Source: Cordylochernes scorpioides
Taxonomy: Eukaryota > Arthropoda > Arachnida > Pseudoscorpiones > Chernetidae
Direction of reading: 5' to 3'
Length of the DNA: 64,000 nt
Assembly: GCA_030710605.1 (NCBI GenBank)
Contig: CP092869.1
Span: 11,805,425 to 11,869,424, forward strand
Part shown: piece after piece, positions 5,095 to 63,407 of the stretch
How the letters are laid out: each line of letters opens with the position of its first letter
How positions within the stretch are numbered: position 1 is the first letter of the stretch
Made by a program: the position numbers and the translations under genes
The notes under the pieces: generated by a model
Database searches by the model: none
Told to the model about the DNA's origin: nothing
The model's input: the letters and a program-made list of their open reading frames with translations, nothing else

Positions 5095-5509
5095 TTAAAA
5101 TTTATATGAATGACCTCTGTACATAACTATTGTTTGTACATTCAGGAACTATGTTGAACTTGTTGTTAAACAGTACCTGATAAAGTTATTTTGTACTGGA
5201 ACTTGTCATTGAGGAACAGCCTGCATTCAATATTGACGAGGGCGATCAGTCTAATACGCATAGTTAATTCGATCCTATAGTTAATCAAGTAGATATTTTT
5301 CCAGAAGTCCAGATTAATGAAAAAAATCCCAAAGATTAGTTTATATTTATTCTGACACATGACGCAAGCCTTCAGCTACTTTCATCTCCACGAGATATAG
5401 GATACATATTTCTTAATTTAACGATATAATCTCATTACAATTTCAAATTTTTGTTCTATTTTATAATCATTGTATTATTCTTCCTCTTTCTTATCTCCGC
5501 TCAATCATA

Positions 5510-19872: not shown

Positions 19873-20231
19873 CTGAGGATGAATATATTTGGGAGACCAA
19901 TCAGATGGTGATATGTCATAACAATGTGGCTGACACGTTTGGATGGGAAGAGAGAGGGAAAGAAACCTGTAATTTTAACTATTCAACCCTTTTATTTTCT
20001 CCCTTAGGTGTATTTAAGCGACTTACTTCAGTCTTTGTCAGATCTGTATTTTTTATTTTACCATTTCTTGATTAATTTGTTATAATTTGAAATGGTTAAA
20101 ATATTCCTGAACGCTAGAGATATCAAAAGGTTTTTCTTATTTAAAAAGGAAACATTTAAATTATTGACAAATAGGAAAAGTGGTTGAGATGGAATATTTT
20201 GCAGGTTAAGGTATGTAATATATAGACTAAC

Positions 20232-20430
20232 TTATGAAAAAGACATCTCCTCATCGTGCAACTGAAAGTTGCTGATGGCTTACGCCATCTATCGGAATAA
20301 ATATCAACTATTCTCCTTGATTTTTAATTATTCCAGAATTGGCAAAATACCCATTCTTGATTAATCAAGAAAAACTAATCAGGGTCGCGTTTCGGGCGTT
20401 AACAATATCTCATTTGTACTATTTTTTCAC
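20232..20430. mobile_element. Short retroelement related to the hammerhead-bearing element
   Basis: A 199-base insertion flanked by the 12-bp direct repeat ATATAGACTAAC (20,220-20,231 and 20,431-20,442), a target duplication length typical of target-primed retrotransposition. It is homologous end to end with 61,412-61,690. The region corresponding to the hammerhead core is only partly kept: on the minus strand GCCC-GAAA-CGCG is present but the CTGATGA box is gone. The same insertion is in X2 at 52,984-53,180. Confidence 0.7.
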
Positions 20431-20720
20431 ATATAGACTAACGATTATAAATTGTGAAATATATATTTATTTATTTCTATTGCTTCTTAAAGAAAATTTA
20501 TATTGCATAATCAATATTTTATTTAGGCTTTTCAATATTTCACAGCAATGAATTCGCTGATGTAATTGAGCTCTCACCTATAAATATTAAAAGCAGTATC
20601 CTTGTTTGTTTTATGTATATTTAATCTATGGAAATAATGATATTTATTAACCATCCATATATTACTCTTGAAATTATAAAATTTATTGATATGTTCAAGA
20701 AAGTGTTTTGTGTGCATTTC

Positions 20721-20722: not shown

Positions 20723-20751
20723 ATATGAATATTCAATCCTTTTGAAATCAA

Positions 20752-30505: not shown

Positions 30506-30536
30506 TGTTGAATTAATCTGTTTTAATTCGATACTT

Positions 30537-30551
30537 TTGTCGACTGCGCCA
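30537..30551 (-). promoter_or_regulatory. Primer-binding site of gypsy C
   Basis: On the minus strand, immediately inside the 5' LTR, TGGCGCAGTCGACAA matches the type of site used by gypsy-group elements primed with tRNA-Ser. The tRNA identity is from memory of that group and untested here. Confidence 0.7.
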
Positions 30552-31945: not shown

Positions 31946-32209
31946 GTAAAAATATAATTGAAAAATCATTAATATCTAAACATTAGTCTAGCTAGCTTAT
32001 TTATATTATATATATTATATTAATAGATGTTAACTGAAGGAAACATTCAACAGATGAATCTTGCAGGATTTATTATTATACACATATTGTATATAAATCT
32101 TTTTTTGTTTTCGTGTCTAATGAAGAGCCTTAGATGTCTCCATACATCTCTATTATAGCAGTTGCAAGGTCCTCTAACTTGGGTGTGTAAAGCTGCTGTT
32201 CTGCGTATA

Positions 32210-33530
32210 CGAGGTGTGTTCAAAAGGTATCGCGACTTTTGAATTTTCGCGGGTTACGTATATTCGAATTTCGATCTTTTTGTGGCTTTATGTTGGTACT
32301 CATGTCTCTCACTTATGCCGACAAGCTCGGCCATTTTGAATGTTCACTTAATTGTTGACAGATGCTTTGCTTGCAGGTGTTTTGGATCGTCTTCGATTTT
32401 TACCTATTAAAAAAAATGGATCAAAGAACCTGTATCAAATTTTGTGTGAAAAACGAAATTATGTGCGCGGATGCATTCCGAATGTTGACTGTGGAATACG
32501 GAGAAGCTACCTTGGACCGAAGCAACGTTTATCGGTGGTACAAAATGCTCTCAGAAGGCCGAGAAGATGTGAACGACGAAGTGCGTGCCTGACGCCCGAA
32601 AACTTCAACAACAGACGAAAAAAATAATGAAGTGGAGAAAATGATATTGGCCAATCGTCGAATCACCGTTAGAGAAGTTGCTGAGGACCTAAACATATCG
32701 ATTTGCTCGTGCCATTCGATTTTTATCAATGATTTGGGCATGAGACTGGTCGCCGCGAAATTCGTACTAAAATTGCTCAATTGCGACCAAAAACAGCATC
32801 ACATGAACATTGCTAATGAGATTTTGGACTCTGTCCGCGACGACCCAAATTTGCTCCAGAAGGTCATAACTGGTGACGTAGTGTGGGTTTATGGTTATGA
32901 CGTGGAAACCAAAGCTCAATCATCTCAATGAAAGCTGCCGCACGAACCAAGACCGAAAAAAGCGCGCCAAGTTCGGTCGAATGTGAAAGTTTTGCTGACA
33001 GTTTTCTTCGATTGCAGGGGCGTGGTGCATCATGAGTTCTTGCCACAGGGTAGAACGGTCAATAAGGAATATTACCTGCAAGTTTTGCGCAATTTGCGCG
33101 AAGCAATCCGCCAGAAATGCCCGGATTTGTGGAAGAACAAAAATTGGCTTTTGCACCACGATAACGCCCCTGCTCACACATCGTTGCTTGTGCGCGACCT
33201 TTTGGCCAAAACGAATACACTAATGATGCCGCAGCCACCGTATTCCCCAGATCTGGCACCCTGTGACTTTTTCTTGTTCCCTAAACTGAAGAGGTCCATG
33301 AAAGGATGACGTTACGCTACGCTTGACGAGATAAAGACGGCATCGAAGGAGGAGCTGAAAAAGATTTTAAAAATGATTTTTTGAAGTGCTTCGAAGATTG
33401 GAAAAACCGTTGGTACAAGTGTATAATATCTCATGGGGATTACTTTGAAGGGGACAAAATAGGCATTCATGAATAAATAAATAATTTTTGAAAAAACACA
33501 AAAGTCGCGATACCTTTTGAACACGCCTCG
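32210..33530 (+). mobile_element. mariner element, unit 1
   Basis: 1,321 bases with ~31-bp terminal inverted repeats beginning CGAGG(T/C)GTGTTCAAAAGG, flanked by TA at 32,208-32,209 and 33,531-33,532. X1 lacks the insertion (~5,055). The transposase gene is broken. The end sequences resemble those of the mori/cecropia type of mariner. Confidence 0.93.
32416..33480 (+). pseudogene. mariner transposase, unit 1
   Basis: One frame from the ATG at 32,416 carries an N-terminal helix-turn-helix region (DRSNVYRWYKMLSEGRED) and the catalytic domain with TGDVVWVYGYD, HHDNAPAH and YSPDLAPCDFFLF. The last two aspartates have 34 residues between them, the D,D34D spacing. Nonsense codons are at 32,590-32,592, 32,929-32,931 and, only in this unit, 33,307-33,309. 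A frameshift near 33,357 moves the C-terminus into another frame. The glutamate usually following the first aspartate (GDE) is replaced by valine. Confidence 0.9.
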
Positions 33531-34503
33531 TATGTAAAATATCTGAGGTTATCGTGTACAATGAAGAGCTCGGATGTCTTCATACATATCTATTACAGAA
33601 GTCGCAATGTTCTCTATCTTGTTTGTGTAAAACATCTGTTCTGAGTCTATGTGAATTTTCTGCAAGGCTGATAATATTTAATATATTTATGATATATAAA
33701 TGACCCTCTACATAACAATTGATTGTACATACAGGAACTATGTTGAACCTGTTGTTGAACAGTACCTGATAAAGTTATTTTGTATTGGAACTTGTCATTG
33801 AAGAACAGCCTGCACTCAATATTGACGAGGGCCATTAGTCTAAAACGCATAGTTAATTGGATCCTATAGTTAATCAAGTAGATACTTTTCCAGAAGTCCA
33901 GGTTAATGAAATAAATCCCAACGATTAGTTCATATTTATTCTGACACATGACCTAAGCCTTCAGCTACTTTCATCTCCACGAGATATAGGATGCATATGT
34001 CCTTAATTTAACGATGTAATCTCAGTACAATTTCATATTTTTGTTCTATTTTATAATCATTGTATTATTCTTCCTCTTTCTTATCTCCGCTCAATCATAT
34101 TAGGGTATCAAGCTTGTAGAGCTTGAGCCTTGACAACCCTCATGATTGAGTTAATAAGATTGCGTCTTCCTTTGTCATTAAGACTGGGAGCACTACTTAG
34201 TGGCAGGCCGACTTAGCTCCAAAGAAATGGCCGCCTCTGACATGAGGAATAAAAACCATGTGCAGCGCTTCTAGCATGGAGTATAAACGCTGCTCATCCT
34301 GTATCTCTGGGTTAGGAGCCCTTACAGGGTACTATCAGCCGGGTCAGCTGAGCCCAGGTTTGTTTAGCGAGCTTTTTACTGCTCCCCTCCTCCTTTTCAT
34401 CCGGCTTGGAACCGGCAAAGGCGGAGTTAAAATCATTGTAAATATGTTAAAGAGAAAAATGAATGCAACAGGACTCATATCGTATCCAGGTTCTACTTAT
34501 CAA

Positions 34504-35163
34504 GTTAAATTCTCGAATTCACATTCTTGTGCCAGATGCTTTAATTCTGTGACAAATTACATGATTCCCTGCCTTTCCTTTTGTACACAGGTAAAAATGC
34601 ATTTCTCCTTTGAATCGTATTTTTGAAGGGCTTAAAATGGTTCGTAAACATATCAAGCATTACCTTTACATTTGGGTAGGTATCATTTTCACTTATGTGA
34701 AATGTTTTGTATATCATCACTGTTTTCTCACCAGCAATATGCTTCAAGATTGCTCGCTGACGCACCAGCGGAATGCTTTCTAAATTTACCGCTTTTGCAA
34801 AAATTTCAAACGACTCTCTACAGGTTTCCCATTTTTTTTTCGTTGCTGTACGGGACAAATTCCGCCGGCGGCTTGATTCCTTCCATTCTACTCACTGTTG
34901 AATTAATCTGTTTTAATTCGATACTTTTGTCGACTGCGCCATGTTGTAATGTGTAAGAGTTGTCTGAACAAACTCGCTACGACTTACAAGTTGAACTGAA
35001 TGTTTATTCAATCTAGCAATCTTCTTATATACAAGATAGAGATAAAAAGGAAATAATTTACATAGGTTTTTTTTTAAAACAATTGACAAATGGAATAATT
35101 TTGCATAGTTAACAATAGGTAACAATTATAACACTTAACATAGGTTATTTACATATCACAACA
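34504..35163 (-). pseudogene. Gypsy C gag fragment plus 5' LTR, unit 2
   Basis: Amplified copy of 30,114-30,773. Gag N-terminus at 34,858-34,541 is shifted by a T-run indel; the LTR is at 34,942-35,163. It has no pol, so it is not an independent insertion. Confidence 0.9.
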
Positions 35164-36598
35164 GATATGTTGGCTATAAATAAAATTTAGATATAAATGG
35201 GTAGAAATAGGTCTAATTAATGAATCATATAGTTTCGTAAAAATATCGCGACAGCCATAAAATTTAACTATCAAATAAGAAAGGCTCATTTTGGATTGAA
35301 ATATACAGGTATAATTATTAGAAATTACGTTGAATATAACGTTTCTCTTTTAAAAATAAGTTTGTGAAAATATCAACTCCTCTAAATATACTATCGAATA
35401 ATTATACAAGGTCATGGAGACGAAATTCATAGATAAAATTCACAATCTTGGTATTGCTGGAATATAGGTTCTGTCATTAGACTCACATGCAGTTGAAGAG
35501 GTGGTCTGGTGAGACCTCTTTGGTCCATTGTCATAATGTCCATAAATCATGGAGCCTTATGGTTCAGATCGTTGAAATATAAATAATAAACCTGTTTACT
35601 TTCTATCCAAGATATTTCTACTTGAGTGAAATAAATAATGTTATTTTTTAAGATTAGTCAGAGTTCCCTTTTTATTAAGCAAAACAAGGATAGTCTGATT
35701 ATTTCAGCATTTACAAAGTTGATCCTGTGTCAATGTTTTGGAAGGAGTTGTGATGATCCAAATTACTCCTAGATACCAAACAGGCTCCTTCTACTTGATG
35801 GTACATTAATGAAACTTAATTATTTGGTTAATTTCATTTCTCGAGTGGGAGAAAAGTATTGAAATTGAATTTTGAGGGTTCATTTATATTAGATTTCTTT
35901 TAAACTATATCTCTTCATATATAAATTTGACTTTTTAATAAGCAACAAGAATAGTCTGATTATTTCTGCATTTACAAAGTTGATCCTTTTGTCAATATGT
36001 TTTTGAAAGGAGTTGTGATGATCCAAATTACTTCTATATATCGAACACTGTCCTTCCACCTGATGGTACACTAATGAAACTTAGCTATTTGGTTAATTTC
36101 ATTTATTGGGTGTGAGAAAAGTATTGAATTTGAATTTTGAGGGTTCATTTAGATTATCTTTCTTTCAAACTATATCTCTTCATATATAAAGTCTTCGAGA
36201 AGTTTTTGTGAATTGTTTCTTTGTTATATGCAGAGAATAGAATTTTTGTGTCATCAGCAAAGAAGTTCAGTTTTGTTCCTTCATAACGAAAAGAAATCAG
36301 ATCATTAATTAATATGTAAGATAACATAGGACCAGTAAAAATATAATTGAAAAATCATTAATATCTAAACATTAGTCTAGCTAGCTTATTTATATTATAT
36401 ATATTATATTAATAGATGTTAACTGAAGGAAACATTCAACAGATGAATCTTGCAGGATTTATTATTATACACATATTGTATATAAATCTTTTTTTGTTTT
36501 CGTGTCTAATGAAGAGCCTTAGATGTCTCCATACATCTCTATTATAGCAGTTGCAAGGTCCTCTAACTTGGGTGTGTAAAGCTGCTGTTCTGCGTATA

Positions 36599-37919
36599 CG
36601 AGGTGTGTTCAAAAGGTATCGCGACTTTTGAATTTTCGCGGGTTACGTATATTCGAATTTCGATCTTTTTGTGGCTTTATGTTGGTACTCATGTCTCTCA
36701 CTTATGCCGACAAGCTCGGCCATTTTGAATGTTCACTTAATTGTTGACAGATGCTTTGCTTGCAGGTGTTTTGGATCGTCTTCGATTTTTACCTATTAAA
36801 AAAAATGGATCAAAGAACCTGTATCAAATTTTGTGTGAAAAACGAAATTATGTGCGCGGATGCATTCCGAATGTTGACTGTGGAATACGGAGAAGCTACC
36901 TTGGACCGAAGCAACGTTTATCGGTGGTACAAAATGCTCTCAGAAGGCCGAGAAGATGTGAACGACGAAGTGCGTGCCTGACGCCCGAAAACTTCAACAA
37001 CAGACGAAAAAAATAATGAAGTGGAGAAAATGATATTGGCCAATCGTCGAATCACCGTTAGAGAAGTTGCTGAGGACCTAAACATATCGATTTGCTCGTG
37101 CCATTCGATTTTTATCAATGATTTGGGCATGAGACTGGTCGCCGCGAAATTCGTACTAAAATTGCTCAATTGCGACCAAAAACAGCATCACATGAACATT
37201 GCTAATGAGATTTTGGACTCTGTCCGCGACGACCCAAATTTGCTCCAGAAGGTCATAACTGGTGACGTAGTGTGGGTTTATGGTTATGACGTGGAAACCA
37301 AAGCTCAATCATCTCAATGAAAGCTGCCGCACGAACCAAGACCGAAAAAAGCGCGCCAAGTTCGGTCGAATGTGAAAGTTTTGCTGACAGTTTTCTTCGA
37401 TTGCAGGGGCGTGGTGCATCATGAGTTCTTGCCACAGGGTAGAACGGTCAATAAGGAATATTACCTGCAAGTTTTGCGCAATTTGCGCGAAGCAATCCGC
37501 CAGAAATGCCCGGATTTGTGGAAGAACAAAAATTGGCTTTTGCACCACGATAACGCCCCTGCTCACACATCGTTGCTTGTGCGCGACCTTTTGGCCAAAA
37601 CGAATACACTAATGATGCCGCAGCCACCGTATTCCCCAGATCTGGCACCCTGTGACTTTTTCTTGTTCCCTAAACTGAAGAGGTCCATGAAAGGACGACG
37701 TTACGCTACGCTTGACGAGATAAAGACGGCATCGAAGGAGGAGCTGAAAAAGATTTTAAAAATGATTTTTTGAAGTGCTTCGAAGATTGGAAAAACCGTT
37801 GGTACAAGTGTATAATATCTCATGGGGATTACTTTGAAGGGGACAAAATAGGCATTCATGAATAAATAAATAATTTTTGAAAAAACACAAAAGTCGCGAT
37901 ACCTTTTGAACACGCCTCG
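36599..37919 (+). mobile_element. mariner element, unit 2
   Basis: Copy of 32,210-33,530 by tandem amplification, not by transposition. The transposase frame has two nonsense codons and the 3' frameshift but keeps an arginine codon where unit 1 has a stop. Confidence 0.93.
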
Positions 37920-38892
37920 TATGTAAAATATCTGAGGTTATCGTGTACAATGAAGAGCTCGGATGTCTTCATACATATCTATTACAGAAGTCGCAATGTT
38001 CTCTATCTTGTTTGTGTAAAACATCTGTTCTGAGTCTATGTGAATTTTCTGCAAGGCTGATAATATTTAATATATTTATGATATATAAATGACCCTCTAC
38101 ATAACAATTGATTGTACATACAGGAACTATGTTGAACCTGTTGTTGAACAGTACCTGATAAAGTTATTTTGTATTGGAACTTGTCATTGAAGAACAGCCT
38201 GCACTCAATATTGACGAGGGCCATTAGTCTAAAACGCATAGTTAATTGGATCCTATAGTTAATCAAGTAGATACTTTTCCAGAAGTCCAGGTTAATGAAA
38301 TAAATCCCAACGATTAGTTCATATTTATTCTGACACATGACCTAAGCCTTCAGCTACTTTCATCTCCACGAGATATAGGATGCATATGTCTTAATTTAAC
38401 GATGTAATCTCAGTACAATTTCATATTTTTGTTCTATTTTATAATCATTGTATTATTCTTCCTCTTTCTTATCTCCGCTCAATCATATTAGGGTATCAAG
38501 CTTGTAGAGCTTGAGCCTTGACAACCCTCATGATTGAGTTAATAAGATTGCGTCTTCCTTTGTCATTAAGACTGGGAGCACTACTTAGTGGCAGGCCGAC
38601 TTAGCTCCAAAGAAATGGCCGCCTCTGACATGAGGAATAAAAACCATGTGCAGCGCTTCTAGCATGGAGTATAAACGCTGCTCATCCTGTATCTCTGGGT
38701 TAGGAGCCCTTACAGGGTACTATCAGCCGGGTCAGCTGAGCCCAGGTTTGTTTAGCGAGCTTTTTACTGCTCCCCCTCCTCCTTTTCATCCGGCTTGGAA
38801 CCGGCAAAGGCGGAGTTAAAATCATTGTAAATATGTTAAAGAGAAAAATGAATGCAACAGGACTCATATCGTATCCAGGTTCTACTTATCAA

Positions 38893-39550
38893 GTTAAATT
38901 CTCGAATTCACATTCTTGTGCCAGATGCTTTAATTCTGTGACAAATTACATGATTCCCTGCCTTTCATTTTGTACACAGGTAAAAAATGCATTTCTCCTT
39001 TGAATCGTATTTTTGAAGGGCTTAAATGGTTCGTAAACATATCAAGCATTTCCTTTACATTTGGGTAGGTATCATTTTCACTTATGTGAAATGTTTTGTA
39101 TATCATCACTGTTTTCTCACCAGCAATATGCTTCAAGATTGCTCGCTGACGCACCAGCGGAATGCTTTCTAAATTTACCGCTTTTGCAAAAATTTCAAAC
39201 GACTCTCTACAGGTTTCCCATTTTTTTCGTTGCTGTACGGGACAAATTCCGCCGGCGGCTTGATTCCTTCCATTCTACTCACTGTTGAATTAATCTGTTT
39301 TAATTCGATACTTTTGTCGACTGCGCCATGTTGTAATGTGTAAGAGTTGTCTGAACAAACTCGCTACGACTTACAAGTTGAACTGAATGTTTATTCAATC
39401 TAGCAATCTTCTTATATACAAGATAGAGATAAAAAGAAAATAATTTACATAAGTTTTTTTTTAAAACAATTGACAAATGGAATAATTTTGCATAGTTAAC
39501 AATAGGTAACAATTATAACACTTAACATAGGTTATTTACATATCACAACA
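38893..39550 (-). pseudogene. Gypsy C gag fragment plus 5' LTR, unit 3
   Basis: Amplified copy of 30,114-30,773 with LTR at 39,329-39,550; further small indels in gag. Confidence 0.9.
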
Positions 39551-40986
39551 GATATGTTGGCTATAAATAAAATTTAGATATAAATGGGTAGAAATAGGTC
39601 TAATTAATGAATCATATAGTTTCGTAAAAATATCGCGACAGCCATAAAATTTAACTATCAAATAAGAAAGGCTCATTTTGGATTGAAATATACAGGTATA
39701 ATTATTAGAAATTACGTTGAATATAACGTTTCTCTTTTAAAAATAAGTTTGTGAAAATATCAACTCCTCTAAATATACTATCGAATAATTATACAAGGTC
39801 ATGGAGACGAAATTCATAGATAAAATTCACAATCTTGGTATTGCTGGAATATAGGTTCTGTCATTAGACTCACATGCAGTTGAAGAGGTGGTCTGGTGAG
39901 ACCTCTTTGGTCCATTGTCATAATGTCCATAAATCATGGAGCCTTATGGTTCAGATCGTTGAAATATAAATAATAAACCTGTTTACTTTCTATCCAAGAT
40001 ATTTCTACTTGAGTGAAATAAATAATGTTATTTTTTAAGATTAGTCAGAGTTCCCTTTTTATTAAGCAAAACAAGGATAGTCTGATTATTTCAGCATTTA
40101 CAAAGTTGATCCTGTGTCAATGTTTTTGGAAGGAGTTGTGATGATCCAAATTACTCCTAGATACCAAACAGGCTCCTTCTACTTGATGGTACATTAATGA
40201 AACTTAATTATTTGGTTAATTTCATTTCTCGAGTGGGAGAAAAGTATTGAAATTGAATTTTGAGGGTTCATTTATATTAGATTTCTTTTAAACTATATCT
40301 CTTCATATATAAATTTGACTTTTTAATAAGCAACAAGAATAGTCTGATTATTTCTGCATTTACAAAGTTGATCCTTTTGTCAATATGTTTTTGAAAGGAG
40401 TTGTGATGATCCAAATTACTTCTATATATCGAACACTGTCCTTCCACCTGATGGTACATTAATGAAACTTAGCTATTTGGTTAATTTCATTTATTGGGTG
40501 TGAGAAAAGTATTGAATTTGAATTTTGAGGGTTCATTTAGATTATCTTTCTTTCAAACTATATCTCTTCATATATAAAGTCTTCGAGAAGTTTTTGTGAA
40601 TTGTTTCTTTGTTATATGCAGAGAATAGAATTTTTGTGTCATCAGCAAAGAAGTTCAGTTTTGTTCCTTCATAACGAAAAGAAATCAGATCATTAATTAA
40701 TATGTAAGATAACATAGGACCAGTAAAAATATAATTGAAAAATCATTAATATCTAAACATTAGTCTAGCTAGCTTATTTATATTATATATATTATATTAA
40801 TAGATGTTAACTGAAGGAAACATTCAACAGATGAATCTTGCAGGATTTATTATTATACACATATTGTATATAAATCTTTTTTTGTTTTCGTGTCTAATGA
40901 AGAGCCTTAGATGTCTCCATACATCTCTATTATAGCAGTTGCAAGGTCCTCTAACTTGGGTGTGTAAAGCTGCTGTTCTGCGTATA

Positions 40987-42307
40987 CGAGGTGTGTTCAA
41001 AAGGTATCGCGACTTTTGAATTTTCGCGGGTTACGTATATTCGAATTTCGATCTTTTTGTGGCTTTATGTTGGTACTCATGTCTCTCACTTATGCCGACA
41101 AGCTCGGCCATTTTGAATGTTCACTTAATTGTTGACAGATGCTTTGCTTGCAGGTGTTTTGGATCGTCTTCGATTTTTACCTATTAAAAAAAATGGATCA
41201 AAGAACCTGTATCAAATTTTGTGTGAAAAACGAAATTATGTGCGCGGATGCATTCCGAATGTTGACTGTGGAATACGGAGAAGCTACCTTGGACCGAAGC
41301 AACGTTTATCGGTGGTACAAAATGCTCTCAGAAGGCCGAGAAGATGTGAACGACGAAGTGCGTGCCTGACGCCCGAAAACTTCAACAACAGACGAAAAAA
41401 ATAATGAAGTGGAGAAAATGATATTGGCCAATCGTCGAATCACCGTTAGAGAAGTTGCTGAGGACCTAAACATATCGATTTGCTCGTGCCATTCGATTTT
41501 TATCAATGATTTGGGCATGAGACTGGTCGCCGCGAAATTCGTACTAAAATTGCTCAATTGCGACCAAAAACAGCATCACATGAACATTGCTAATGAGATT
41601 TTGGACTCTGTCCGCGACGACCCAAATTTGCTCCAGAAGGTCATAACTGGTGACGTAGTGTGGGTTTATGGTTATGACGTGGAAACCAAAGCTCAATCAT
41701 CTCAATGAAAGCTGCCGCACGAACCAAGACCGAAAAAAGCGCGCCAAGTTCGGTCGAATGTGAAAGTTTTGCTGACAGTTTTCTTCGATTGCAGGGGCGT
41801 GGTGCATCATGAGTTCTTGCCACAGGGTAGAACGGTCAATAAGGAATATTACCTGCAAGTTTTGCGCAATTTGCGCGAAGCAATCCGCCAGAAATGCCCG
41901 GATTTGTGGAAGAACAAAAATTGGCTTTTGCAGCACGATAACGCCCCTGCTCACACATCGTTGCTTGTGCGCGACCTTTTGGCCAAAACGAATACACTAA
42001 TGATGCCGCAGCCACCGTATTCCCCAGATCTGGCCCCCTGTGACTTTTTCTTGTTCCCTAAACTGAAGAGGTCCATGAAAGGACGACGTTACGCTACGCT
42101 TGACGAGATAAAGACGGCATCGAAGGAGGAGCTGAAAAAGATTTTAAAAATGATTTTTTGAAGTGCTTCGAAGATTGGAAAAACCGTTGGTACAAGTGTA
42201 TAATATCTCATGGGGATTACTTTGAAGGGGACAAAATAGGCATTCATGAATAAATAAATAATTTTTGAAAAAACACAAAAGTCGCGATACCTTTTGAACA
42301 CGCCTCG
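40987..42307 (+). mobile_element. mariner element, unit 3
   Basis: Third amplified copy. It reads LLQHDNAPAH rather than LLHHDNAPAH near the second catalytic aspartate; otherwise it has the same two nonsense codons and the 3' frameshift. Confidence 0.93.
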
Positions 42308-42477
42308 TATGTAAAATATCTGAGGTTATCGTGTACAATGAAGAGCTCGGATGTCTTCATACATATCTATTACAGAAGTCGCAATGTTCTCTATCTTGTT
42401 TGTGTAAAACATCTGTTCTGAGTCTATGTGAATTTTCTGCAAGGCTGATAATATTTAATATATTTATGATATATAAA

Positions 42478-44035
42478 TGACCCTCTACATAACAATTGAT
42501 TGTACATACAGGAACTATGTTGAACCTGTTGTTGAACAGTACCTGATAAAGTTATTTTGTATTGGAACTTGTCATTGAAGAACAGCCTGCACTCAATATT
42601 GACGAGGGCCATTAGTCTAAAACGCATAGTTAATTGGATCCTATAGTTAATCAAGTAGATACTTTTCCAAAAGTCCAGGTTAATGAAATAAATCCCAACG
42701 ATTAGTTCATATTTATTATGACACATGACCTAAGCCTTCAGCTACTTTCATCTCCACGAGATATAGGATACATATGTCTTAATTTAACGATGTAATCTCA
42801 GTACAATTTCATATTTTTGTTCTATTTTATAATCATTGTATTATTCTTCCTCTTTCTTATCTCCGCTCAATCATATTAGGGTATCAAGCTTGTAGAGCTT
42901 GAGCCTTGACAACCCTCATGATTGAGTTAATAAGATTGCGTCTTCCTTTGTCATTAAGACTGGGAGCACTACTTAGTGGCAGGCCGACTTAGCTCCAAAG
43001 AAATGGCCGCCTCTGACATGAGGAATAAAAACCATGTGCAGCGCTTCTAGCATGGAGTATAAACGCTGCTCATCCTGTATCTCTGGGTTAGGAGCCCTTA
43101 CAGGGTACTATCAGCCGGGTCAGCTGAGCCCAGGTTTGTTTAGCGAGCTTTTTACTGATCCCCTCCTCCTTTTCATCCGGCTTGGAACCGGCAAAGGCGG
43201 AGTTAAAATCATTGTAAATATGTTAAAGAGAAAAATGAATGCAACAGGACTCATATCGTATCCAGGTTCTACTTATCAATTATGATACTACATTATATCG
43301 CCCGCCATTTTGTTATTGTTTCCTAGCAGTCGTTAGGTAGGTACCTAATTCTTTGTCTTCTCCCTTTAAATTTATAGAATGGCCATTACAGTTTATTATA
43401 TTACCTATATTTATTGTTGAATTCAGAGAATCGAAGTTAATGACAAATATTTGAAAGAAGTAATAATAAAGATGAATTTAATAAAATAATCTCTTGAATC
43501 AATATTAAAATAAGAACATTAAAGGGAAAAGTTTATTTTAAAAATATTTTTCATTCAAAAACTCTCTCAAGCTTTCAGGCAAGAAAGCCCTTCTAAGGCG
43601 CTTTATTGGCGTTTTAATGATGTAAGATATTTTCTCCCATAGAAGGGCTTTCTTGCCTGAAAGTTTAAGAGATTTTTAAATAAAAATATTTTAAAAATAA
43701 ACTTTTCCTTGGATGCTTAATGTTCTTGTTTTAATAAAGATAAATTTATTTTATAAATATATCTAAGTGCTTATATGCTTTTTTCAGAATTTTATTGTTG
43801 CAAAATATATAAATTGCCATTTAACAAATATTTACAGCCGAACTTGAATAGTTTGAAGGGCAAGGGAACAAAAAAAAAATGTATTATCCAAAATATGAAA
43901 TCGAAAACGGAAATTCTTTCTATAGGAAATTATAGGGACCAAGATAAATATTCGAATTAAAGACGTATTCAAATTAAAGACGTTAGACTTACCCAAGTTT
44001 TACTGTATATGAAAGTAAAATAATCAGTTCACCAG
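42478..44035. repeat. Composite repeat block, copy C
   Basis: The complete block in X2, formed by the end of tandem unit 3 and the sequence beyond it. It contains the LINE-tail-like segment (~42,880-43,250) and the foldback MITE at 43,523-43,710, and ends TTCACCAG against gypsy A copy 3. Confidence 0.75.
43523..43710. repeat. Foldback MITE in block C
   Basis: Orthologous insertion to 6,159-6,347, with arms of ~70 bases. Confidence 0.82.
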
Positions 44036-49466: not shown

Positions 49467-50370
49467 TTTTTAACCCTCACAGTTTAAATTAATTAAATGA
49501 AATTTTAATTACTCACCTGTGTTAGAGAGGCTTTACCTGCTTAAACCTGGATAAACCCTTTCACTCCCCGGGCCCATCTATGGTAATTTAAGCCAACAAC
49601 CCCATATTGTATATAACTTATAACAATATTTTCATGTTGTATAATAGAAACACATCTGTAAATGATTATACGCATGTACTTTGTACAAACTGAGGATAAA
49701 TAAATAAAACTCTGTAATAGATTATGAGTTGAGATGAAGCAAGAGATAGAAGTCAAAAACGTCTAAAATCGAGATAGATGGAAGTCACAAAACAACATCT
49801 AAAGATAGATTGGAAACTGTCAGGACGGCGCCAGTTTAAAATTTCACCAAACGATCCACACTCTTCACATCTGGTGAAATGCAAAACTCCCTTTCTCAGA
49901 AAAGGTATATAAAGCCTCCGTCCTAGCCAAAAATACAGTCACCTCTCCATCTGCGTGAGCCCTCGTCGGTTGTTCCCCAGGTCCACCTTATCCACCATGT
50001 AGTCAGTAAGAACTCTTTTATCTCCATCTTTCGCTCCTAGCTCAACTTTTATCTGTTCACAGAACTTTCTTAGTTCAACTGTTTCTTTGTTTTTTGTGTG
50101 GACATTCCCAAGCTTTCCACTCTGCCTCGACCACGACTGCCTGTACTCTGTGAGAATTTCTAAAGGTCTTCCAAGGTGCAGAGAGTTACTGGAAAACTCC
50201 ACATCCTGACTGTTCCTCTCGGTCAACGCATTATAGCGAGAGTTACAGGGACTCACACCATAGTTTAAGTTGACTCGATACCTCATCACAGTTTTAGTCG
50301 ACAGGATTCTACAAGAGTCAACTATACCTCATCACATTTATAGTCGACAGGATGCCATCACATATATATG
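49467..50370. other. TATA-containing segment, X2 copy
   Basis: Counterpart of 16,668-17,604, with TATATAAAG at 49,905-49,913 and the initiator-like CAGTCA near 49,936. Confidence 0.45.
49939..50289 (-). CDS. Open frame of unknown function (116 codons), minus strand
   Basis: Continuous frame starting MMRYRVNLNYGVSPCNSRY and ending LGNNRRGLTQMER. The C-terminal half is charged and plausible as protein (KFCEQIKVELGAKDGDKR). In X1 the same sequence is split into two frames by a one-base indel in a T run. It lies opposite the TATA box just upstream of its stop. I do not recognise it; it may be a gag or leader fragment of a retroelement, or chance. Confidence 0.25.
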   Translation of the reverse strand: MMRYRVNLNYGVSPCNSRYNALTERNSQDVEFSSNSLHLGRPLEILTEYRQSWSRQSGKLGNVHTKNKETVELRKFCEQIKVELGAKDGDKRVLTDYMVDKVDLGNNRRGLTQMER

Positions 50371-50374
50371 ATAT

Positions 50375-51909
50375 ATGTATGGCCCCTGTACATAACTATT
50401 GATTGTGCATTCAGAAACTATGTTGAACAGTACCTGATAAAGTTATTTTGTACTGGAACTGATCATCGAGGAAGAGCCTGCATTCAATATTGACGAGGGT
50501 CATCAGTCTAAAACGCATAGGTAATTGGATCCTATAGTTAATCAAGTAGATATTTTTTCCAGAAGTCCAGATTAATGGATAAAATCCCAAAGATTAGTTC
50601 ATATTTATTCTAACAGATGACGAAGCCTTCAGCTACTTTCATCTCCAAGAGATATAGGATACATATTTTTTAATTTAACAATCTTATCTCAGTAAAATTT
50701 CATATTTTTTTTCTATTTTATAATCAATGTTTTCCTCTTCCTTATCTCCGCTCAATCATATTAGGGTATCAAGCTTGTAGAGCTTGAGACTTGACAACCA
50801 TCATGACTGGGTGAGGTAAAATGCGTCTGCCTTTGTCATTAAGACTGGGAGCACTACTCAGTGGCAGGCTGAATTATCTCCAAAAGAAATGGCCGCCTCT
50901 GACATGAGGAACATCAGCCATTTGCAGCAGCTCCTAACATGGAGTACAAACGCTGCTCATCCTGTATCCCTGGATTAGTAGTCTTTACAGGGTACTATCA
51001 GCCGGGCCAGCTGAGCCTAGGTTTGTTTAGCGAGCTTGTTACTGCTCCCCTCCTCCTTTTCATCCGGGCTTGGAGCCGGCAAAGGCGGAGTTAAAATTAT
51101 TGTAAATATGTTAAAGAGAAAAATGAATGCAACAGGACTCATATCGTATCCAGGTTCTACTTATCAATTATGATACTACATTATATCGCCCGCCATTTTG
51201 TTATTGTTTCCTAGCAGTCGAGAGGTAGGTACCTAATTCTTTGTCTTCTCACTTTTAAGTTTATAGGATGAGAACTACAGTTTACCATATTACCTATATT
51301 TATTGTTGAATTCAGATAATCTAAGTTAATGGCAAATATTTGAAAGAAGTAATAATAAAGATGATTTTGAAAAAATAATCCCTTGAATCAATATTAAAAT
51401 AAAAACATCAAAGGGAAAAGTTTCTTTATTTGAAAATCTCTCAAGCTTTCGGTCAAGAAATCCCTTCTTCGGCGTTTTATTTGCGTTTCAATGATGTATG
51501 ATATTTTCTCCCGTAGAAGAGCTTTCTTGCCTGAAAGCTTGAGAGATTTTTAAATAAAAATATTTCAAAATAAACTTTTCCCTGGATGTTTAATGTTCCT
51601 ATTTTAATAAAGATGAGTTTTCTTGTAGAAATATATCAGAGTGCTTGAATGTTTTTCTTCAGAATTTTATCGATGCAAAACTATATGAATTGCCATTTAA
51701 CAAAGATTTACAACCGAATTTGAGTAATTTGAAGGGCAAGGAACAAAAAAAAAAGTATTATCCAAAAATTCAAATCAAAAACGGAAAATATTTTTATAGG
51801 AAATTCTAGGGACCATGATAAATATTCGAATTAAAGACGTATTCAAATTAAAGACGTTAGAATTATCCAAGTTTTACTGTATATGAAAGTAAAATAATCA
51901 GTTCACCAG
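50375..51909. repeat. Composite repeat block, copy D
   Basis: Counterpart of block B (17,605-19,150), including the LINE-tail-like segment (~50,755-51,130) and the foldback MITE at 51,412-51,583. Confidence 0.72.
51412..51583. repeat. Foldback MITE in block D
   Basis: Same insertion as 18,648-18,820. Confidence 0.82.
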
Positions 51910-52547
51910 ATTTTCAAATATTTTCCATGTAGAATGACGTGGCCTTAATAGAATTTTTCTTTATTTGTCTAATATGTGTACATCTATATTATTCAAATTA
52001 TTAGTGAAACCTTTTTTAATATAATAGTTAAATATTGTATTATCTAAAAACTCATGGGCTTTGTTGTTTATTGTAAATATCACTGATTTTATAATCTTTT
52101 TATAATCATTTTGAATAAAAGGAATATGCAGTAGAATAAAGATCATTATATTTTATTGTTATGTTAAACAAAACTTTCCTTTAATTTGAATAGAAAGACC
52201 TAACATTTATTTTAAAAGATGGCGCGTTAGTGCATCTTATAAATGTCACGATCTCAAACGTCCACTTATAATGGAGAACAATATCCCTCATAGCTAGACA
52301 GTCAATAGGGACCTACTACTTAGGTTTGCATTCAAGGTCTAAGCTGCTTCCTTTTTTAAAGAAGACAAGACATACAATGGATTTAGGAAAACAAAAGCCC
52401 CCAAACAAAAAACGATAAAACTCTGGTTTATAAACCATTGGTGATTTGAGGTTTTCAGAATACTAGACGGGAAGTTTAGAAAAGTCCTGAAGGAGATGGG
52501 AGATTCATAAGCGTGAAGTCGAGACTAGACTGTGTATCCTGCTTATT
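51910..52547. other. Non-coding stretch, X2
   Basis: Counterpart of 19,151-19,793; nothing recognised. Confidence 0.45.
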
Positions 52548-52626
52548 TCATGCTGAATCTTTAAATTTTCCACTCTCTGCAATGACAAGAAATCTGTTTG
52601 CTGCTTCTCTTCCATCTTGCATGGAT
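52548..52626 (-). CDS. Possible terminal exon, X2 copy
   Basis: Counterpart of 19,794-19,872: acceptor TTTATCCTCAG, 26 codons in the same phase beginning SMQDGREAANRFLVIAESG, and the same TGA stop. Differences from X1 are substitutions only, with no indel. That is unusual here, where non-coding sequence gains indels often. Confidence 0.35.
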
Positions 52627-52983
52627 CTGAGGATAAACAAATTTGGGAGATCAATCAGATGATATTTCATAACAAAATGGCTGAAACGTTTGGATGGGAA
52701 AAGAGAAAGAAAGAAACCAATAATTTTGGCTATTCAACCTTTCTATTTTCTCACCTAGGTGTATTTAAGCGACTTATTTTAGTCATTGTCAGATCTGTAT
52801 TTTTTATTTTACCTTTTCTTCATTCACATTTGTTACAATTTGAAATGGTTAGAATATTCACAAAACGTTAGAGATATCGAAAGGTTTTTCTTAGGTAGAG
52901 GGAGCATTTAAATTATTGACTAACAGGAAAAGTGGTTGAGATGGAATATTTTGGAGGTTAAGGTATGTAATATATAGACTAAC

Positions 52984-53180
52984 CTATGAAAAAGACAACT
53001 CCTCATCGTGCAACTGAAAGTTGCTGATGGCTTACGCCATCTATCGGAATAAATATCAACTATTCTCGTTGATTTTTAATTATTCCAGAATTGGCCGAAT
53101 ACCCATTCTTGATTAATCAAGAAAGCTAACCACAGACTCGTTTGGGAGTTAACACTATCACATTTGTACTATTTTTTCAC
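52984..53180. mobile_element. Short retroelement, X2 copy
   Basis: Same insertion as 20,232-20,430, with target repeats at 52,972-52,983 and 53,181-53,192 (one mismatch). The hammerhead core region is decayed. Confidence 0.68.
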
Positions 53181-53464
53181 ATATAGACTAAGGTTTATAA
53201 ATTGTTAAATATTCATTTATTTATTACTATTGCTTCTTAAAGACAATTTTATATCGCATAATCAATATCTTATTTAAGGTTTTCAATAGTTCAGCAATGA
53301 CTTAGCTAATGTAATTGGCTCTCACCTATGAATATTAAAAGCTGTATTCTTGTTATGTTTATGTATATTTAATCTATGGAAATATTGCTATTTAATAGCC
53401 ACATATTACTCTTATAATTATAAAATTTATTGATATGTTCAACAAAGTGTTTTGTTTGCATTTC

Positions 53465-53466
53465 AG
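53465..53466 (+). promoter_or_regulatory. Splice acceptor of TRAF-type gene 2
   Basis: TTTGCATTTCAG, conserved with 20,721-20,722, 29 bases before the ATG. Confidence 0.55.
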
Positions 53467-53495
53467 ATATGAATTTCCAATCCTTTTGAATTCAA

Positions 53496-54921
53496 ATGGC
53501 AGTTCAACAAAAGGAAGGCGAGGTGGTTTGTTCATTTGCAGAGAATGGCTGTCAGCAAGCCTTCAAGACTTCCCAAGACGCCGAGAACCATAAAGATCTC
53601 TGCCAATATTCCAATAAACCTTGTCCACTCGGCTGCAATGACAAAATATGTAAGAAAGACTTGTTGAACCATTTGTCAATTATTTGTCCATGTCGAAATG
53701 ACTGGTGTCTTAATTGTGGCCTGGAGATGTTCCACAGCCATCTGGACTCTCATCGAGATCTTTGCCCCCTAAAGCCAGTCCAATGTCCGTTCTGCGATAT
53801 AGAGACGGTCCTCAAAGATCTGGAGTCTCACCAGAATTCCTGTTCTAAAAGACCTTTTCCTTGTATCATGCAGGACCTAGGATGTGATTGGATCGGAGAG
53901 TCTTCGACAAGGGACAGTCATGAACAAGATATGAACTTACATTTCCCTCTGTTGTGTCGTTCCCTGAAGAAATTCTCCCAGGAAACCTCTCAGAAGTGGA
54001 AGGCCATTGAACTAAAGTTGGATGATCTTAGCCTCAAAATAAGGAACGAGGTCAGTGAAGGTATAGGTCAGCAACTATTGCAACAACTCACTTCATTTAA
54101 AAATGATACAATGGCAGGTTTGAGAGATATCAAAAATGTAAAGAGAAAAATTACAGAAATTTCAATAAGTCAATCTCAAATTAAAGAAGCTATAAAATTA
54201 CAATCAGAAGAAAACCAAATTCTTAAATCAGAAATAAATACTGTAATAGGAAAACTGGCGATGGTGACAAGTAGCAACATTAATAAACATGGTCTATATG
54301 ATATGACAACAAAGAATAATAAAGAATTAGATAATGAGATAAAGAAGCTCGAAGATGAATACGTTCAAAAAAATGCCTCCTAATATACAATTAAGTAAAA
54401 GTTGCCTGTTACGTATTGGTAAAGTTGAACTTGATCTTGAATTGGGATGTGATAGTTGGTTTCCTAAAATGATTTTTGACGATTTTATTGATATTTCCTT
54501 AAAATATTTGTATGGAAAAATTGATTATGAGAAGAGAGATACATGTGGATTCGATATAATAGATTACAAGAATTTACATTTATATAAAAAAGAGATTATT
54601 TTTGAAATTGATGACAAAAATATCACAACAATTTTTAATGGTAAACATTCTAATTCTACGAAACTTGCTTTGTCAATCAAATTCTACCTTGATGATGAAT
54701 CTGAAGACGATGAAACTGTCAAATATCGATACGCCATTTTGACACTATGTAACTCATGTAATGATGAAGTTATTGTCTATTGTACTTCGCTAGTTAGTTC
54801 TTTCAATAATACAGGGAATATTCAGAAAATGTGTACCTTTTGGATAAATAAAGATTTAATGGATAGATATTATGAATATTTTCCAGAAGATATAAAAACA
54901 TATTTAACTTTATATCGTTAA
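53496..54921 (+). CDS. TRAF-type zinc-finger protein gene 2 (one frameshift)
   Basis: The first frame (53,496-54,383) encodes an unbroken N-terminal zinc-finger array (CPLGCNDKICKKDLLNHL, CLNCGLEMFHSHLDSHRDLC, CPFCDIETVLKDLESH, RPFPCIMQDLGCDW) and a ~100-residue coiled coil. An extra A in a run of seven near 54,370 shifts the C-terminal ~185 residues into the frame ending at 54,921. The two copies agree closely through the zinc fingers to about residue 200, then diverge strongly. Shared C-terminal islands include CNDEVIVYCTSLVSS and KYRY(G/A)ILTLCN. The family suggests a cytoplasmic adaptor; no RING or clear MATH domain is visible. Confidence 0.82.
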
Positions 54922-57140: not shown

Positions 57141-57640
57141 ATACTAAAGAGATTATATTAACAACAATATTTGAAGTGTTTAAATTATATTTGGTCAAAT
57201 TTATATATATTAAAATTCTAATTAAATAACTGATAAGTTTTAGCTATATACCTTATTTCTAAAATTTATTTTATATAATTTTTTAAAGAAACATTTAATT
57301 TGAATGTTACAATATTTTATAGCAGATTTAAAATTCACTTCTTTATTTCCTTGTTGAAATATATTTTGAAAATAAAAATGTAGCAACAAACTGTACGTAT
57401 ATATTAATAAAAACACCATTATTATCATTATATCTATACACTAGAGAAATATATCGCTTTCAGAACGTTTCTTGAATAAATATTTTTATATAAGTTTAAA
57501 CCCAGGTTAGGTAATCCACATTGCCTTGTAAATATATTTTAAGTTCAATTAATTAATTGTTCTCACAGAGTGTGAGTGTAAGATCACAAGAAAATAGGCG
57601 CTAACCGTAAGAGATGAGTTTTTCTTTGTTTACTATTTTA
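57141..57640. repeat. AT-rich repeat shared with 61.3-61.8 kb
   Basis: 57,180-57,395 matches 61,295-61,411 plus 61,691-61,790, which shows the uninterrupted target of the hammerhead-bearing insertion: CATTTAATTTGAAT occurs once here (~57,290-57,303). No gene. Confidence 0.65.
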
Positions 57641-61066: not shown

Positions 61067-61289
61067 ATTATTAACACAAGGTAAAAAGTCCAAATCTAAA
61101 TAATTAAATAGTGTGTGACGTTTGACGTGTGACGTCGGTAACAGCGTTGTTATCATTTTCAGATTTTAAAACATGCTGTAGTAAAATTTCTCATTAAGTA
61201 CTTTTGTCTGAAAATGGTAACAATGCTGTTACCGAAACGTCACACACTCTTTATTTATTTGGATTTGGTCTTATTATCTTGTGCTTAAA
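61067..61289. repeat. MITE with ~85-base inverted repeats
   Basis: The arms read (C)AAATC(T/C)AAATAA... then GTGTGTGACGTTT and GGTAACAGC(A/G)TTGTTA(C/T)CATTTTCAG. The left arm has an extra ~14 bases repeating GACGTGTGACG. Right arm 61,208-61,241 shows CTGAAAA, hairpin, GAAACGTC. Confidence 0.8.
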
Positions 61290-61411
61290 TTGTATTTAGT
61301 AAAATTTATATATATATTAGAATTCTAATTGAATAACTGAAAAGTTTTAGCTATATACCTTATTTCTAAATTGTATTTATATAATTTTTTTAAGAAACAT
61401 TTAATTTGAAT

Positions 61412-61690
61412 TAAGAAAAAGGCATCTCCTTATCGTGCAACTGAAAGTTTCTGATGGCTTGCGCCATCTATCGGAATAAATACCAACTATTCACGTTGAT
61501 TTCTAATTTTTCCAGAATTGGCGAAATACCCATTCTTGATTAATCAAGAAAAGCTAACCATGGACGCGTTTCGGGCTGTTGGCCCTCATCAGCGTGGTGC
61601 AAGCTGTACCTCGTTGCACGATAAGGAGATGCCTTTTTCTTAATTTATGTACCTTATCCCAGTACAATATCACATTTGAACTATTTTTCA
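61412..61690 (-). mobile_element. Short retroelement carrying a hammerhead ribozyme
   Basis: 279 bases flanked by the 14-bp direct repeat CATTTAATTTGAAT (61,398-61,411 and 61,691-61,704). The empty target occurs once at ~57,290. Internally it has an inverted repeat of ~33 bases (61,413-61,445 and 61,612-61,647) and, on the minus strand, a hammerhead motif. Two decayed, shorter relatives with 12-bp target repeats occur at 20,232-20,430 and 52,984-53,180. It has no coding capacity. It resembles short derivatives of Penelope-like elements or retrozymes, which carry such ribozymes. Confidence 0.82.
61552..61606 (-). ncRNA. Hammerhead ribozyme (type I, minimal stem III)
   Basis: On the minus strand: helix I strand (AGCTTGCACCACG), CTGATGA (61,592-61,586), helix II GGGC/GCCC with a 5-base loop (61,585-61,573), GAAA (61,572-61,569), CGCG, TC with the predicted cut after C at 61,563, then helix I return strand (CATGGTTAGCT). 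Helix I pairs with one mismatch and an internal loop. Stem III is the self-complementary ACGCGT, as in minimal hammerheads thought to act as dimers. All core bases match the consensus. Confidence 0.85.
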
Positions 61691-61844
61691 CATTTAATTT
61701 GAATGTTACAATATTTTATAACAAATTTAAAATTCACTTCTTTATTTCCTTGTTGAAAATTTATTTGAAAATAAAAATGTAGCAAAAAACTGTATATATA
61801 ATAAAAGAAACTTATCCTCGGAATTTTATGTGTTGCTGCTAACA

Positions 61845-62562: not shown

Positions 62563-63407
62563 TAAGGTTGTCCGAAAAGTTCGTGTTTTATTAAAACGTT
62601 GTTTTTCTTATTAATTAGCGAATAATATTATTACGGCGAATAAATAATAATATATGATACAATTATTTTATTTATAATGCACAATATAATATGGTTTATG
62701 ATTGTAGAACGACTTTGACAATTTTACCGCAAATGTTTCTTTTGATGAAAAATTCGTAATTTATTTTGAAGAGAAATAACGATTATTTCTATCCTTAGGG
62801 ATGAATTATAAAAGGATGAATTGTGAAGAGTAATGATAAATGGAAAAATAAAAGTGTCCAGGGATAGGAAACTTTATTTTTCTGTTTATCATTACCCTTC
62901 ACAATTCATCCTTTCATACTTCATCCTTAAGGATAGAAATATTCGCTATTTCTCCTTAAAGTATGATTTTTCATTCAAAAGACACATTTGAGGTTAAATT
63001 GTCAAAGTCATTCTACAATTACTTTATACATAATACAAAGACATTACAAATTCCTTCCTGATTTATAATATTGTAGAATAAATAAAGCTTCCAGGGTTAA
63101 GTTTCTTGTTCAAATTTTTATTTTCAAGTTTTCGGACTTGTCAGTCCTTCAACAGGATTATTACGATAAAAATAGATGTTATATACTATTTTATATACAA
63201 ATTAATTTTTAAATAAACTAATTTTTTTATCGTGATAATCCTGTTGAAGGACTGATAAGTCCGAAAGCTTAAAAATAAAAATTTGAACAAGAAACTTAAC
63301 CCTGGAAGCTTCATTTATTTTATAACAAAGACATTATACATGACGGCGAATAATATTGATTTTTTATTTTTTTTGCAAGTGTTTACGAACTTTTGGGAGA
63401 ACCTTGT
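62563..63407. mobile_element. mariner-type MITE containing two nested foldbacks
   Basis: Terminal inverted repeats of ~28 bases (AAGGTTGTCCGAAAAGTTCG at 62,565 and its inverse ending ~63,405) next to TA resemble irritans-type mariner ends. Inside are a foldback with ~160-base arms (about 62,697-62,862 and 62,875-63,035) and a second with ~90-base arms (63,083-63,175 and 63,223-63,316). No transposase remains. Confidence 0.78.
63083..63316. repeat. Inner foldback element
   Basis: The arms begin AAGCTTCCAGGGTTAAGTTTC and end in a small hairpin beside GAAAGCTT (63,241-63,270). Arm design matches 56,172-57,140. Confidence 0.82.

What the first reader, a model, noticed from the sequence alone, without database searches (positions are those of the whole stretch)
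61552..61606. Complete hammerhead ribozyme in a 279-bp retroelement
The minus strand has every conserved core base of a hammerhead: CTGATGA, a GGGC/GCCC helix II, GAAA, and a TC cleavage site. Helix I pairs on both sides of an internal loop with a single mismatch. The stem III region ACGCGT is self-complementary, the arrangement known in Penelope-like elements and retrozymes, where short stem III ribozymes work as dimers. The probability of this by chance is very small. A small non-coding retroelement with its own ribozyme implies processing of a tandem or circular RNA.
Basis: partly seen in the sequence, partly recalled or inferred. Interest (0 to 1): 0.85.

Follow-up and report, generated by a model that had tools for sequence, protein, structure and literature searches.

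The report
Ribozyme-bearing jumping element, Penelope-type insertions
The sequence holds a truncated copy of a small non-coding jumping element that carries its own RNA-cutting ribozyme, and the pattern of its genomic copies suggests how such elements insert: copied from a small, possibly circular RNA, once from each side of the break, in the style of Penelope retrotransposons.

Summary
The minus strand at 61552-61605 has a hammerhead core with one A.C mismatch in stem I. Rfam HH9 matches only below threshold (22.2 bits; a sister family reaches 36.1). The stronger evidence is the family: genomic copies keep the core, with compensatory changes between sister families. The unit is 338 bp (sister family 351 bp), non-coding and often tandem: an animal non-LTR retrozyme. 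The window copy is not a 279-bp element with inverted ends. It is one 5'-truncated unit inserted as two head-to-head cDNAs, with a 15-bp target duplication and an empty paralogous site at 57176-57403. With a single hammerhead it cannot itself release a circle. Main new result: of 37 head-to-head insertions scored, 32 have one cDNA ending at unit ~295 and the other at ~338; none has the same site twice; 5 have another end. A one-sided 30-40 bp "tail" of this kind is published for Penelope-like elements, which are suspected but not shown to move animal retrozymes. The autonomous partner was not found (whole-genome protein searches did not complete), and no RNA or activity was tested.

The parts
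61412..61689 (.). whole insertion, two head-to-head cDNA pieces of one 338-bp retrozyme unit
   Evidence: flanked by identical 15-bp duplications; absent from the paralogous locus 57176-57403
61397..61411 (.). left target-site duplication ACATTTAATTTGAAT
   Evidence: exact copy at 61690-61704, present once in the empty site at 57291-57305
61690..61704 (.). right target-site duplication
61409..61612 (-). inverted arm: unit positions 91-294, ending at site I, contains the hammerhead (alignment runs 3 bases into the duplication)
   Evidence: alignment to the 338-bp unit
61613..61688 (+). direct arm: unit positions 262-337, ending at site T ('tail' end)
   Evidence: alignment to the 338-bp unit
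61552..61605 (-). type I hammerhead ribozyme motif; predicted cleavage between 61563 and 61562
   Evidence: core and helices read from sequence; HH9 22.2 bits; covariation in relatives
57176..57403 (+). paralogous empty site
   Evidence: 90% and 92% identical to the two flanks, one copy of the 15-bp target
20228..20435 (-). second copy, begins inside helix II (CTGATGA missing), with a short opposite T arm
   Evidence: unit 127-296 at 93.5% plus unit 313-338 in opposite orientation
52985..53185 (-). third copy, the segmental duplicate of the second
5205..5462 (+). decayed relative (69% to unit 85-336); similar pieces at 17816-17954, 33923-34052, 38312-38440, 42700-42828, 50591-50719

Best explanation
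It is a copy of a non-autonomous animal retrozyme. Its 338-bp unit is transcribed, cut by its hammerhead (probably as a dimer) and probably circularised. The RNA is then inserted by target-primed reverse transcription of the Penelope-like type: both strands of a staggered break in AT-rich DNA are extended, one from initiation site I (unit ~295), the other from site T (~338), often going round the RNA more than once. The two cDNAs join head-to-head, often by microhomology, leaving a duplication of about 9-16 bp. Shown from sequence: hammerhead conservation, units, tandem and head-to-head structure, end rule, duplications. Inferred: cleavage, circularity, and a Penelope-like enzyme.
For: Own-genome copies: 89 matches from the 40 scored of 2830 first-look candidates. 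Tandem hammerheads 337-338 bp apart: 6 pairs in 5 of 20 loci. Covariation in 20 distinct hammerheads of three sister families: 5 pairs changed on both sides, 23 such cells (0 of 500 shuffles as high in cells); sliding the structure destroys it. HH9 36.1 bits, E 5.2e-8 for the 351-bp family. End rule: of 37 head-to-head insertions, 32 have one I and one T end, 0 I+I, 0 T+T, 5 another end; a closer look adds L030 and the window pair 20228/52985. Duplications of 9 bp or more: 30 of 37, against 65 of 400 mismatched flank pairs (without plain AT repeats 25 of 37 against 36 of 400); 19 of the 30 are 12-14 bp, 89% A+T against 66% for the window. Microhomology of 4 bp or more at 14 of 39 junctions (about 2% in simulated ones). 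A 351-bp-family palindrome of 13 full units plus a 299-bp one has 0 substitutions in 103 unit comparisons. [quoted passage not shown] an enzyme that extends both strands, with two internal start sites that delimit the tail (PMC11167929, main text). Animal retrozymes of 170-400 nt with type I hammerheads, mobiliser unknown, Penelope-like elements a strong candidate (PMC7229834).
Against: No autonomous Penelope-like element sharing these ends was found; the whole-genome protein and family searches did not complete. Only fragments turned up in loaded loci (GIY-YIG in L062; a reverse transcriptase in L052 whose Penelope kinship is weak, E 0.03). In vitro the anole enzyme showed no start-site difference between strands, and hammerhead cleavage was not needed, unprocessed RNA being the main substrate (PMC11167929); so neither the strict rule nor the circle is predicted by it. 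21 insertions show one orientation only (14 end at I, 7 at T); only L030 and the two window duplicates gained an opposite piece on closer look. 16 of 39 head-to-head junctions have extra bases instead of microhomology. One 351-bp-family pair of pieces in L062 (6189-6595, 206 bp apart) both end near 300. No RNA data.
Confidence: 0.78

Rival explanations
1. An ordinary SINE-like element moved by a LINE, with the inversions made by LINE twin priming and the ribozyme a relic.
For: 5' truncation, target duplications and microhomology at inverted junctions fit twin priming.
Against: Twin priming as known from LINE-1 (recalled) puts the inverted piece's outer end at varied internal sites; here both outer ends sit at two fixed sites, one of each, in 32 of 37. 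Tandem units follow each other without a gap in many copies. Hammerhead helices covary.
Confidence: 0.1
2. A DNA transposon or MITE with terminal inverted repeats (the 33-bp repeats at 61409-61441 and 61613-61645).
For: Perfect 33-bp inverted repeats at the window copy.
Against: The repeats are the overlap of two head-to-head cDNAs with unequal ends. The other two window copies have an opposite arm of only unit 313-338, so no such repeat; other copies have long tandem arms or one orientation, and duplication lengths vary.
Confidence: 0.03
3. The arrays are copied from linear multimeric transcripts rather than circles (the insertion machinery may be the same).
For: A linear multimer would give the same arrays; the anole enzyme used unprocessed RNA (PMC11167929). 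No 5' end marks the cleavage site.
Against: Units inside one insertion share subfamily markers: mixed in 0 of 36, 1 of 42 and 0 of 32 insertions at sites 200, 243 and 318, though 2 of 37 at 210, 1 of 20 at 16 and 7 of 32 at 320; the L087 array has no substitutions. This favours one template type but does not exclude a linear multimer of identical units.
Confidence: 0.3
4. The window motif is a chance resemblance to a hammerhead.
For: Sub-threshold Rfam score; stem-I mismatch.
Against: 0 sites in 40 simulated windows; conserved core and covariation in relatives.
Confidence: 0.01

Closest known systems
Metazoan non-LTR retrozymes (Cervera and de la Pena 2020, PMC7229834)
   Same: 170-400 bp non-coding unit, type I hammerhead, tandem copies, target duplications longer than 4 bp, low GC, very self-paired RNA; weak helix III as in amphibians
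   Different: Helix III has 3 pairs and no loop; insertions here are mostly head-to-head with two fixed, paired 3' ends, a feature not mentioned in the sections I read
Penelope-like elements, insertion anatomy (PMC3846280, PMC11167929)
   Same: Tandem and head-to-head copies, one-sided tail, short target duplications in AT-rich DNA, a hammerhead upstream of two initiation sites
   Different: No protein frame: longest ATG frame in a trimer of units is 44 aa (338-bp unit) and 28 aa (351-bp unit)
Rfam Hammerhead_HH9 (RF02275)
   Same: Core, helix II and outer stem I align
   Different: Below gathering score; shorter helix III and internal loop
pDo500 satellite of Dolichopoda cave crickets (PMC2837043, seen in a search listing only)
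   Same: Insect satellite repeat with a hammerhead
   Different: Not compared by sequence here

Membership tests
Hammerhead ribozyme, type I | Conserved core with three helices, open at stem I | tested here: met
   covariation; the window copy has one mismatch
Hammerhead ribozyme, type I | Rfam covariance model at gathering score | tested here: not met
   22.2 and 36.1 bits against 52; third family no hammerhead match
Hammerhead ribozyme, type I | Self-cleavage | not testable with these tools
   needs transcription assay
Metazoan non-LTR retrozyme | Non-coding unit of about 170-400 bp with a type I hammerhead | tested here: met
   338 and 351 bp; longest frames 44 and 28 aa
Metazoan non-LTR retrozyme | Tandem copies | tested here: met
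Metazoan non-LTR retrozyme | Target duplications longer than 4 bp | tested here: met
   9 bp or more in 30 of 37 head-to-head insertions, 65 of 400 in mismatched flanks
Metazoan non-LTR retrozyme | Highly self-paired RNA | tested here: met
   predicted circular fold -114.2 against -70.7 (sd 5.0) for 60 shuffles; circularity itself not tested
Metazoan non-LTR retrozyme | Expressed linear and circular RNA | not testable with these tools
   no RNA data
Penelope-like element (as autonomous element) | Frame for reverse transcriptase and GIY-YIG endonuclease | tested here: not met
   no long frame in the units; it inserts like one but is not one
Penelope-like integration | Tail at one of two inverted copies | tested here: met
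   32 of 37 head-to-head insertions, none with tail at both ends or with two I ends; 5 with another end
Penelope-like integration | Matching autonomous element in the genome | tested here: inconclusive
   fragments only in 361 kb of loaded, partly overlapping sequence; whole-genome searches unanswered

The most novel reading that the evidence does not exclude
Each insertion is the DNA record of two-sided rolling-circle reverse transcription: one circular ribozyme RNA is copied from both strands of the break, and the two strands are obliged to use different start sites 41 nt apart. That would be a strand-coupling rule for Penelope-class enzymes, read from all 32 insertions whose two ends fall at the two sites.
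Probability: 0.45. Interest if true: 0.8.

Novelty: new member of a known kind. Interest (0 to 1): 0.6.

Why it matters
Who moves animal retrozymes is open in the papers read: they name Penelope-like elements as candidates, because the two co-occur and both carry hammerheads (PMC7229834 sections, PMC7761336 and PMC8969392 passages). Here a genome with 2830 first-look candidates (40 scored) allows a structural test. The insertions examined carry the published Penelope signature and a stricter rule, one start site per strand, that an in vitro Penelope system could test directly.

Tried and rejected
Terminal-inverted-repeat transposon: rejected, the inverted ends are two overlapping cDNAs. 5' ends at the ribozyme cleavage site: among the 15 one-orientation copies they lie at unit 1, 1, 1, 11, 52, 74, 74, 81, 81, 89, 90, 90, 92, 174 and 291; none at 140/141, so the DNA gives no direct mark of cleavage. 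RNA editing or misreading at unit site 142 (two bases past the cleavage site): first attractive because it is mixed within 14 of 19 multi-unit insertions of the first set, 10.1 expected at random, and 16 of 32 over both sets. Weakened because two duplicates of one insertion (L079, L085) differ at it, so at least one change or conversion came after insertion, and because A is 3 of 45 in the less diverged set and 23 of 68 in the more diverged one; no age trend by divergence between units of one insertion. Left unexplained. A relative in viral contigs: 0 matches to one exact pattern. Autonomous partner: not found. Literature: 9 searches, open-licence PubMed Central papers only; I saw no report of the paired-end rule for retrozymes in the listings or in the passages or sections read of five papers (PMC7229834, PMC11167929, PMC3846280, PMC7761336, PMC8969392). 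The original papers on Penelope tails and on Penelope hammerheads were not read (one was not held).

Rows dropped: L078, L080 and L085 as duplicates of L069, L073 and L079; L032 as the short version of L062; other 1-kb loci later refetched at 9.5 kb; hits under 88% identity or 40-45 nt and clusters under 150-180 bp. L067 and L076 run to the locus edge and were not scored. L043 and L046 are likely duplicates of one one-orientation insertion, and window 20228 and 52985 of another; all four were counted among the 21. The first locus set is all 38 further places; the second is 20 regions chosen from the list, the rest not fetched. Of the 351-bp family only L087 was fetched on purpose.

Full report
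What is in the window. The minus strand at 61552-61605 folds as a type I hammerhead: every core base is present, helix II is GGGC/GCCC, stem III is the self-complementary ACGCGT, and stem I pairs on both sides of an internal loop with one A.C mismatch (61561/61594). Rfam gives no match at gathering score and HH9 at 22.2 bits against 52. A scanner that asks for the core and all three stems found nothing in 40 simulated 64-kb windows; the window copy itself fails it because of the mismatch.

The insertion. The flanks carry the same 15-bp word at 61397-61411 and 61690-61704. The paralogous stretch 57176-57403 has both flanks (90% and 92% identical) and a single copy of that word: it is the empty site. 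Between the words lie 278 bp. They are not an element with terminal inverted repeats. Aligned to the 338-bp unit (taken from a tandem copy), the left arm is unit 294 to 91 on the minus strand and the right arm unit 262 to 337 on the plus strand; the 33-bp inverted repeat is their overlap. The window copy at 61412-61689 holds one hammerhead only, so it cannot cut out a monomer.

The family. The window copy finds 89 matches, with 2830 first-look candidates; a second query 59, with 1602; a sister family with a 351-bp unit 224, with 772. Only the best 40 candidates are scored each time, so true numbers are not known. Hammerheads stand 337-338 bp apart in 6 pairs in 5 of 20 loci of 9.5 kb. The 351-bp family forms longer arrays. 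L087 has, inverted, 6 full units and one ending at 299, and, direct, 7 full units, with a short piece on either side of the turn; 0 substitutions in 103 unit comparisons, a few one-base length differences. A third hammerhead, with a CCATGG stem III, lies in two inverted copies at L064 4401 and 4550.

Ribozyme evidence. All 20 distinct hammerhead sequences that a core pattern found in the loci were aligned, with the window copy, which equals one of them. 93.7% of cells pair. Five pairs change on both sides, in 23 cells; 0 of 500 shuffles reach the number of cells or the covariation score, 14 of 500 reach five pairs and 54 of 500 the number of pair types; sliding the 3' partners by one to three columns drops pairing to 23-38%. 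Examples are helix II G-C to C-G and outer stem I U-A to C-G between the 338- and 351-bp families. The 351-bp family scores 36.1 bits with HH9, E 5.2e-8; the third family has no Rfam hammerhead match. As a circle the 338-nt unit folds at -114.2 kcal/mol against -70.7 (sd 5.0) for 60 shuffles. Stem III has three pairs and no loop, so it can close only between two hammerheads; amphibian examples with a very weak helix III cleave well only as dimers (PMC7229834, section 15). Whether this one cleaves is untested.

The end rule. After removing 3 duplicate loci I scored 60 rows: 2 run to a locus edge, 37 are head-to-head, 21 have one orientation. Of the 37, 32 have one end at site I (unit 286-300) and the other at site T (334-338); none has I+I or T+T. 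Five have another end: T with 97, 102 and 227, I with 97 and 226. If two ends at these sites were drawn independently with equal chance, 32 of 32 mixed pairs would have a probability of 2e-10. The second locus set, found with a one-orientation copy as query, gives 10 I/T and 2 with another end. Looking for arms shorter than the filter added L030 and the window pair 20228/52985, which are duplicates of one another; the other one-orientation copies gained none. In the 351-bp family L054, L060, L063 (2103-2496), L065, L066 and L087 show one end near 293-299 and one near 340-351; a pair of pieces in L062 (6189-6595), 206 bp apart, both end near 300 and may be an exception or two insertions. The 21 one-orientation rows end 14 times at I and 7 times at T.

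Target duplications. 30 of 37 head-to-head insertions have one of 9 bp or more, against 65 of 400 pairs of flanks taken from different insertions; leaving out plain AT repeats, 25 of 37 against 36 of 400. Two of the 32 I/T insertions (L060, L061) have none found. Nineteen of the 30 are 12-14 bp; the three longest (19-21 bp) lie in AT repeats. They are 89% A+T, the window 66%.

Mechanism. [quoted passage not shown] The purified anole enzyme cleaves and extends both strands of an AT-rich target, and starts copying at two adjacent internal sites that delimit the tail (PMC11167929, main text). The insertions here have the same anatomy: two fixed start sites 41 nt apart, downstream of a hammerhead, one used per strand; duplications in AT-rich DNA; head-to-head junctions with microhomology of 4 bp or more in 14 of 39 cases, against about 2% in simulated junctions, while 16 of 39 have extra bases. 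I therefore think a Penelope-like enzyme moves this retrozyme. The anole study saw no start-site difference between strands in vitro, so the strict pairing is not predicted by it.

Template. Within an insertion the units mostly share subfamily markers: over both sets sites 200, 243 and 318 are mixed in 0 of 36, 1 of 42 and 0 of 32 insertions, site 210 in 2 of 37, site 16 in 1 of 20 and site 320 in 7 of 32; in the first set random drawing would have mixed 6.8 of 23, 13.8 of 26 and 8.9 of 16 at the first three, where 0 were. Together with long arrays without substitutions this fits repeated passes round one circular RNA, but a linear multimer from one homogeneous locus would do as well. In the anole study hammerhead cleavage was not needed in vitro, which is against circles being required. 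No 5' end of a one-orientation copy falls at the cleavage site.

The partner. In 361 kb of loaded, partly overlapping sequence a probe recalled from memory finds a GIY-YIG fragment in L062 (E 4e-9; Pfam PF01541 E 0.0028, below cutoff). A reverse-transcriptase fragment in L052 matches RVT_1 (E 1.1e-7), but the Penelope probe only at E 0.03, and solved structures only weakly (best E 0.067). Penelope-like proteins thus seem to be present, but none is tied to this unit.

Verdict. The unit, the composite nature of the insertion and the paired-end rule are what the tools add. It is a new member of the animal retrozymes, of more than routine interest because its copies bear on how such elements move.

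Noticed in passing
unit position 142 = window 61561 (base 2 after the predicted cleavage site): A or G at this one site varies within single insertions (16 of 32 multi-unit ones mixed), while of the 11 other CpG sites of the unit only 87-88 changes noticeably. A weakens stem I. Two duplicates of one insertion differ at it. Unexplained hotspot.
   Followed up: partly
L069, L078, L081, L067, L048: A further 3' end near unit 97-102 in five loci (L069 and L078 are duplicates), perhaps a third initiation site or a different truncation.
   Followed up: partly
L064 4340-4640 (L014 136-194 is the same place): A third hammerhead family with stem III CCATGG, two inverted copies next to a 338-bp-family insertion.
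   Followed up: partly
window 30114-43282: Three tandem copies of a 4.39-kb block, 99.7% alike, with mariner-like transposase frames (name recalled) at 32932, 37321 and 41709.
   Followed up: no
window 16909-21436 and 49674-54181: 94% identical duplication with TRAF-type zinc-finger frames (name recalled) from 20746 and 53490; the retrozyme copies at 20228 and 52985 lie in it and so probably predate it.
   Followed up: partly
window 61133-61237 and 62783-62942: Hairpins with sub-threshold Rfam microRNA-precursor scores, probably MITE-like inverted repeats.
   Followed up: no
   Followed up: partly
unit about 233-242 and its counterparts in the other two families: A shared AGATGGYGY stretch downstream of the hammerhead in all three families, by eye only.
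   Followed up: no
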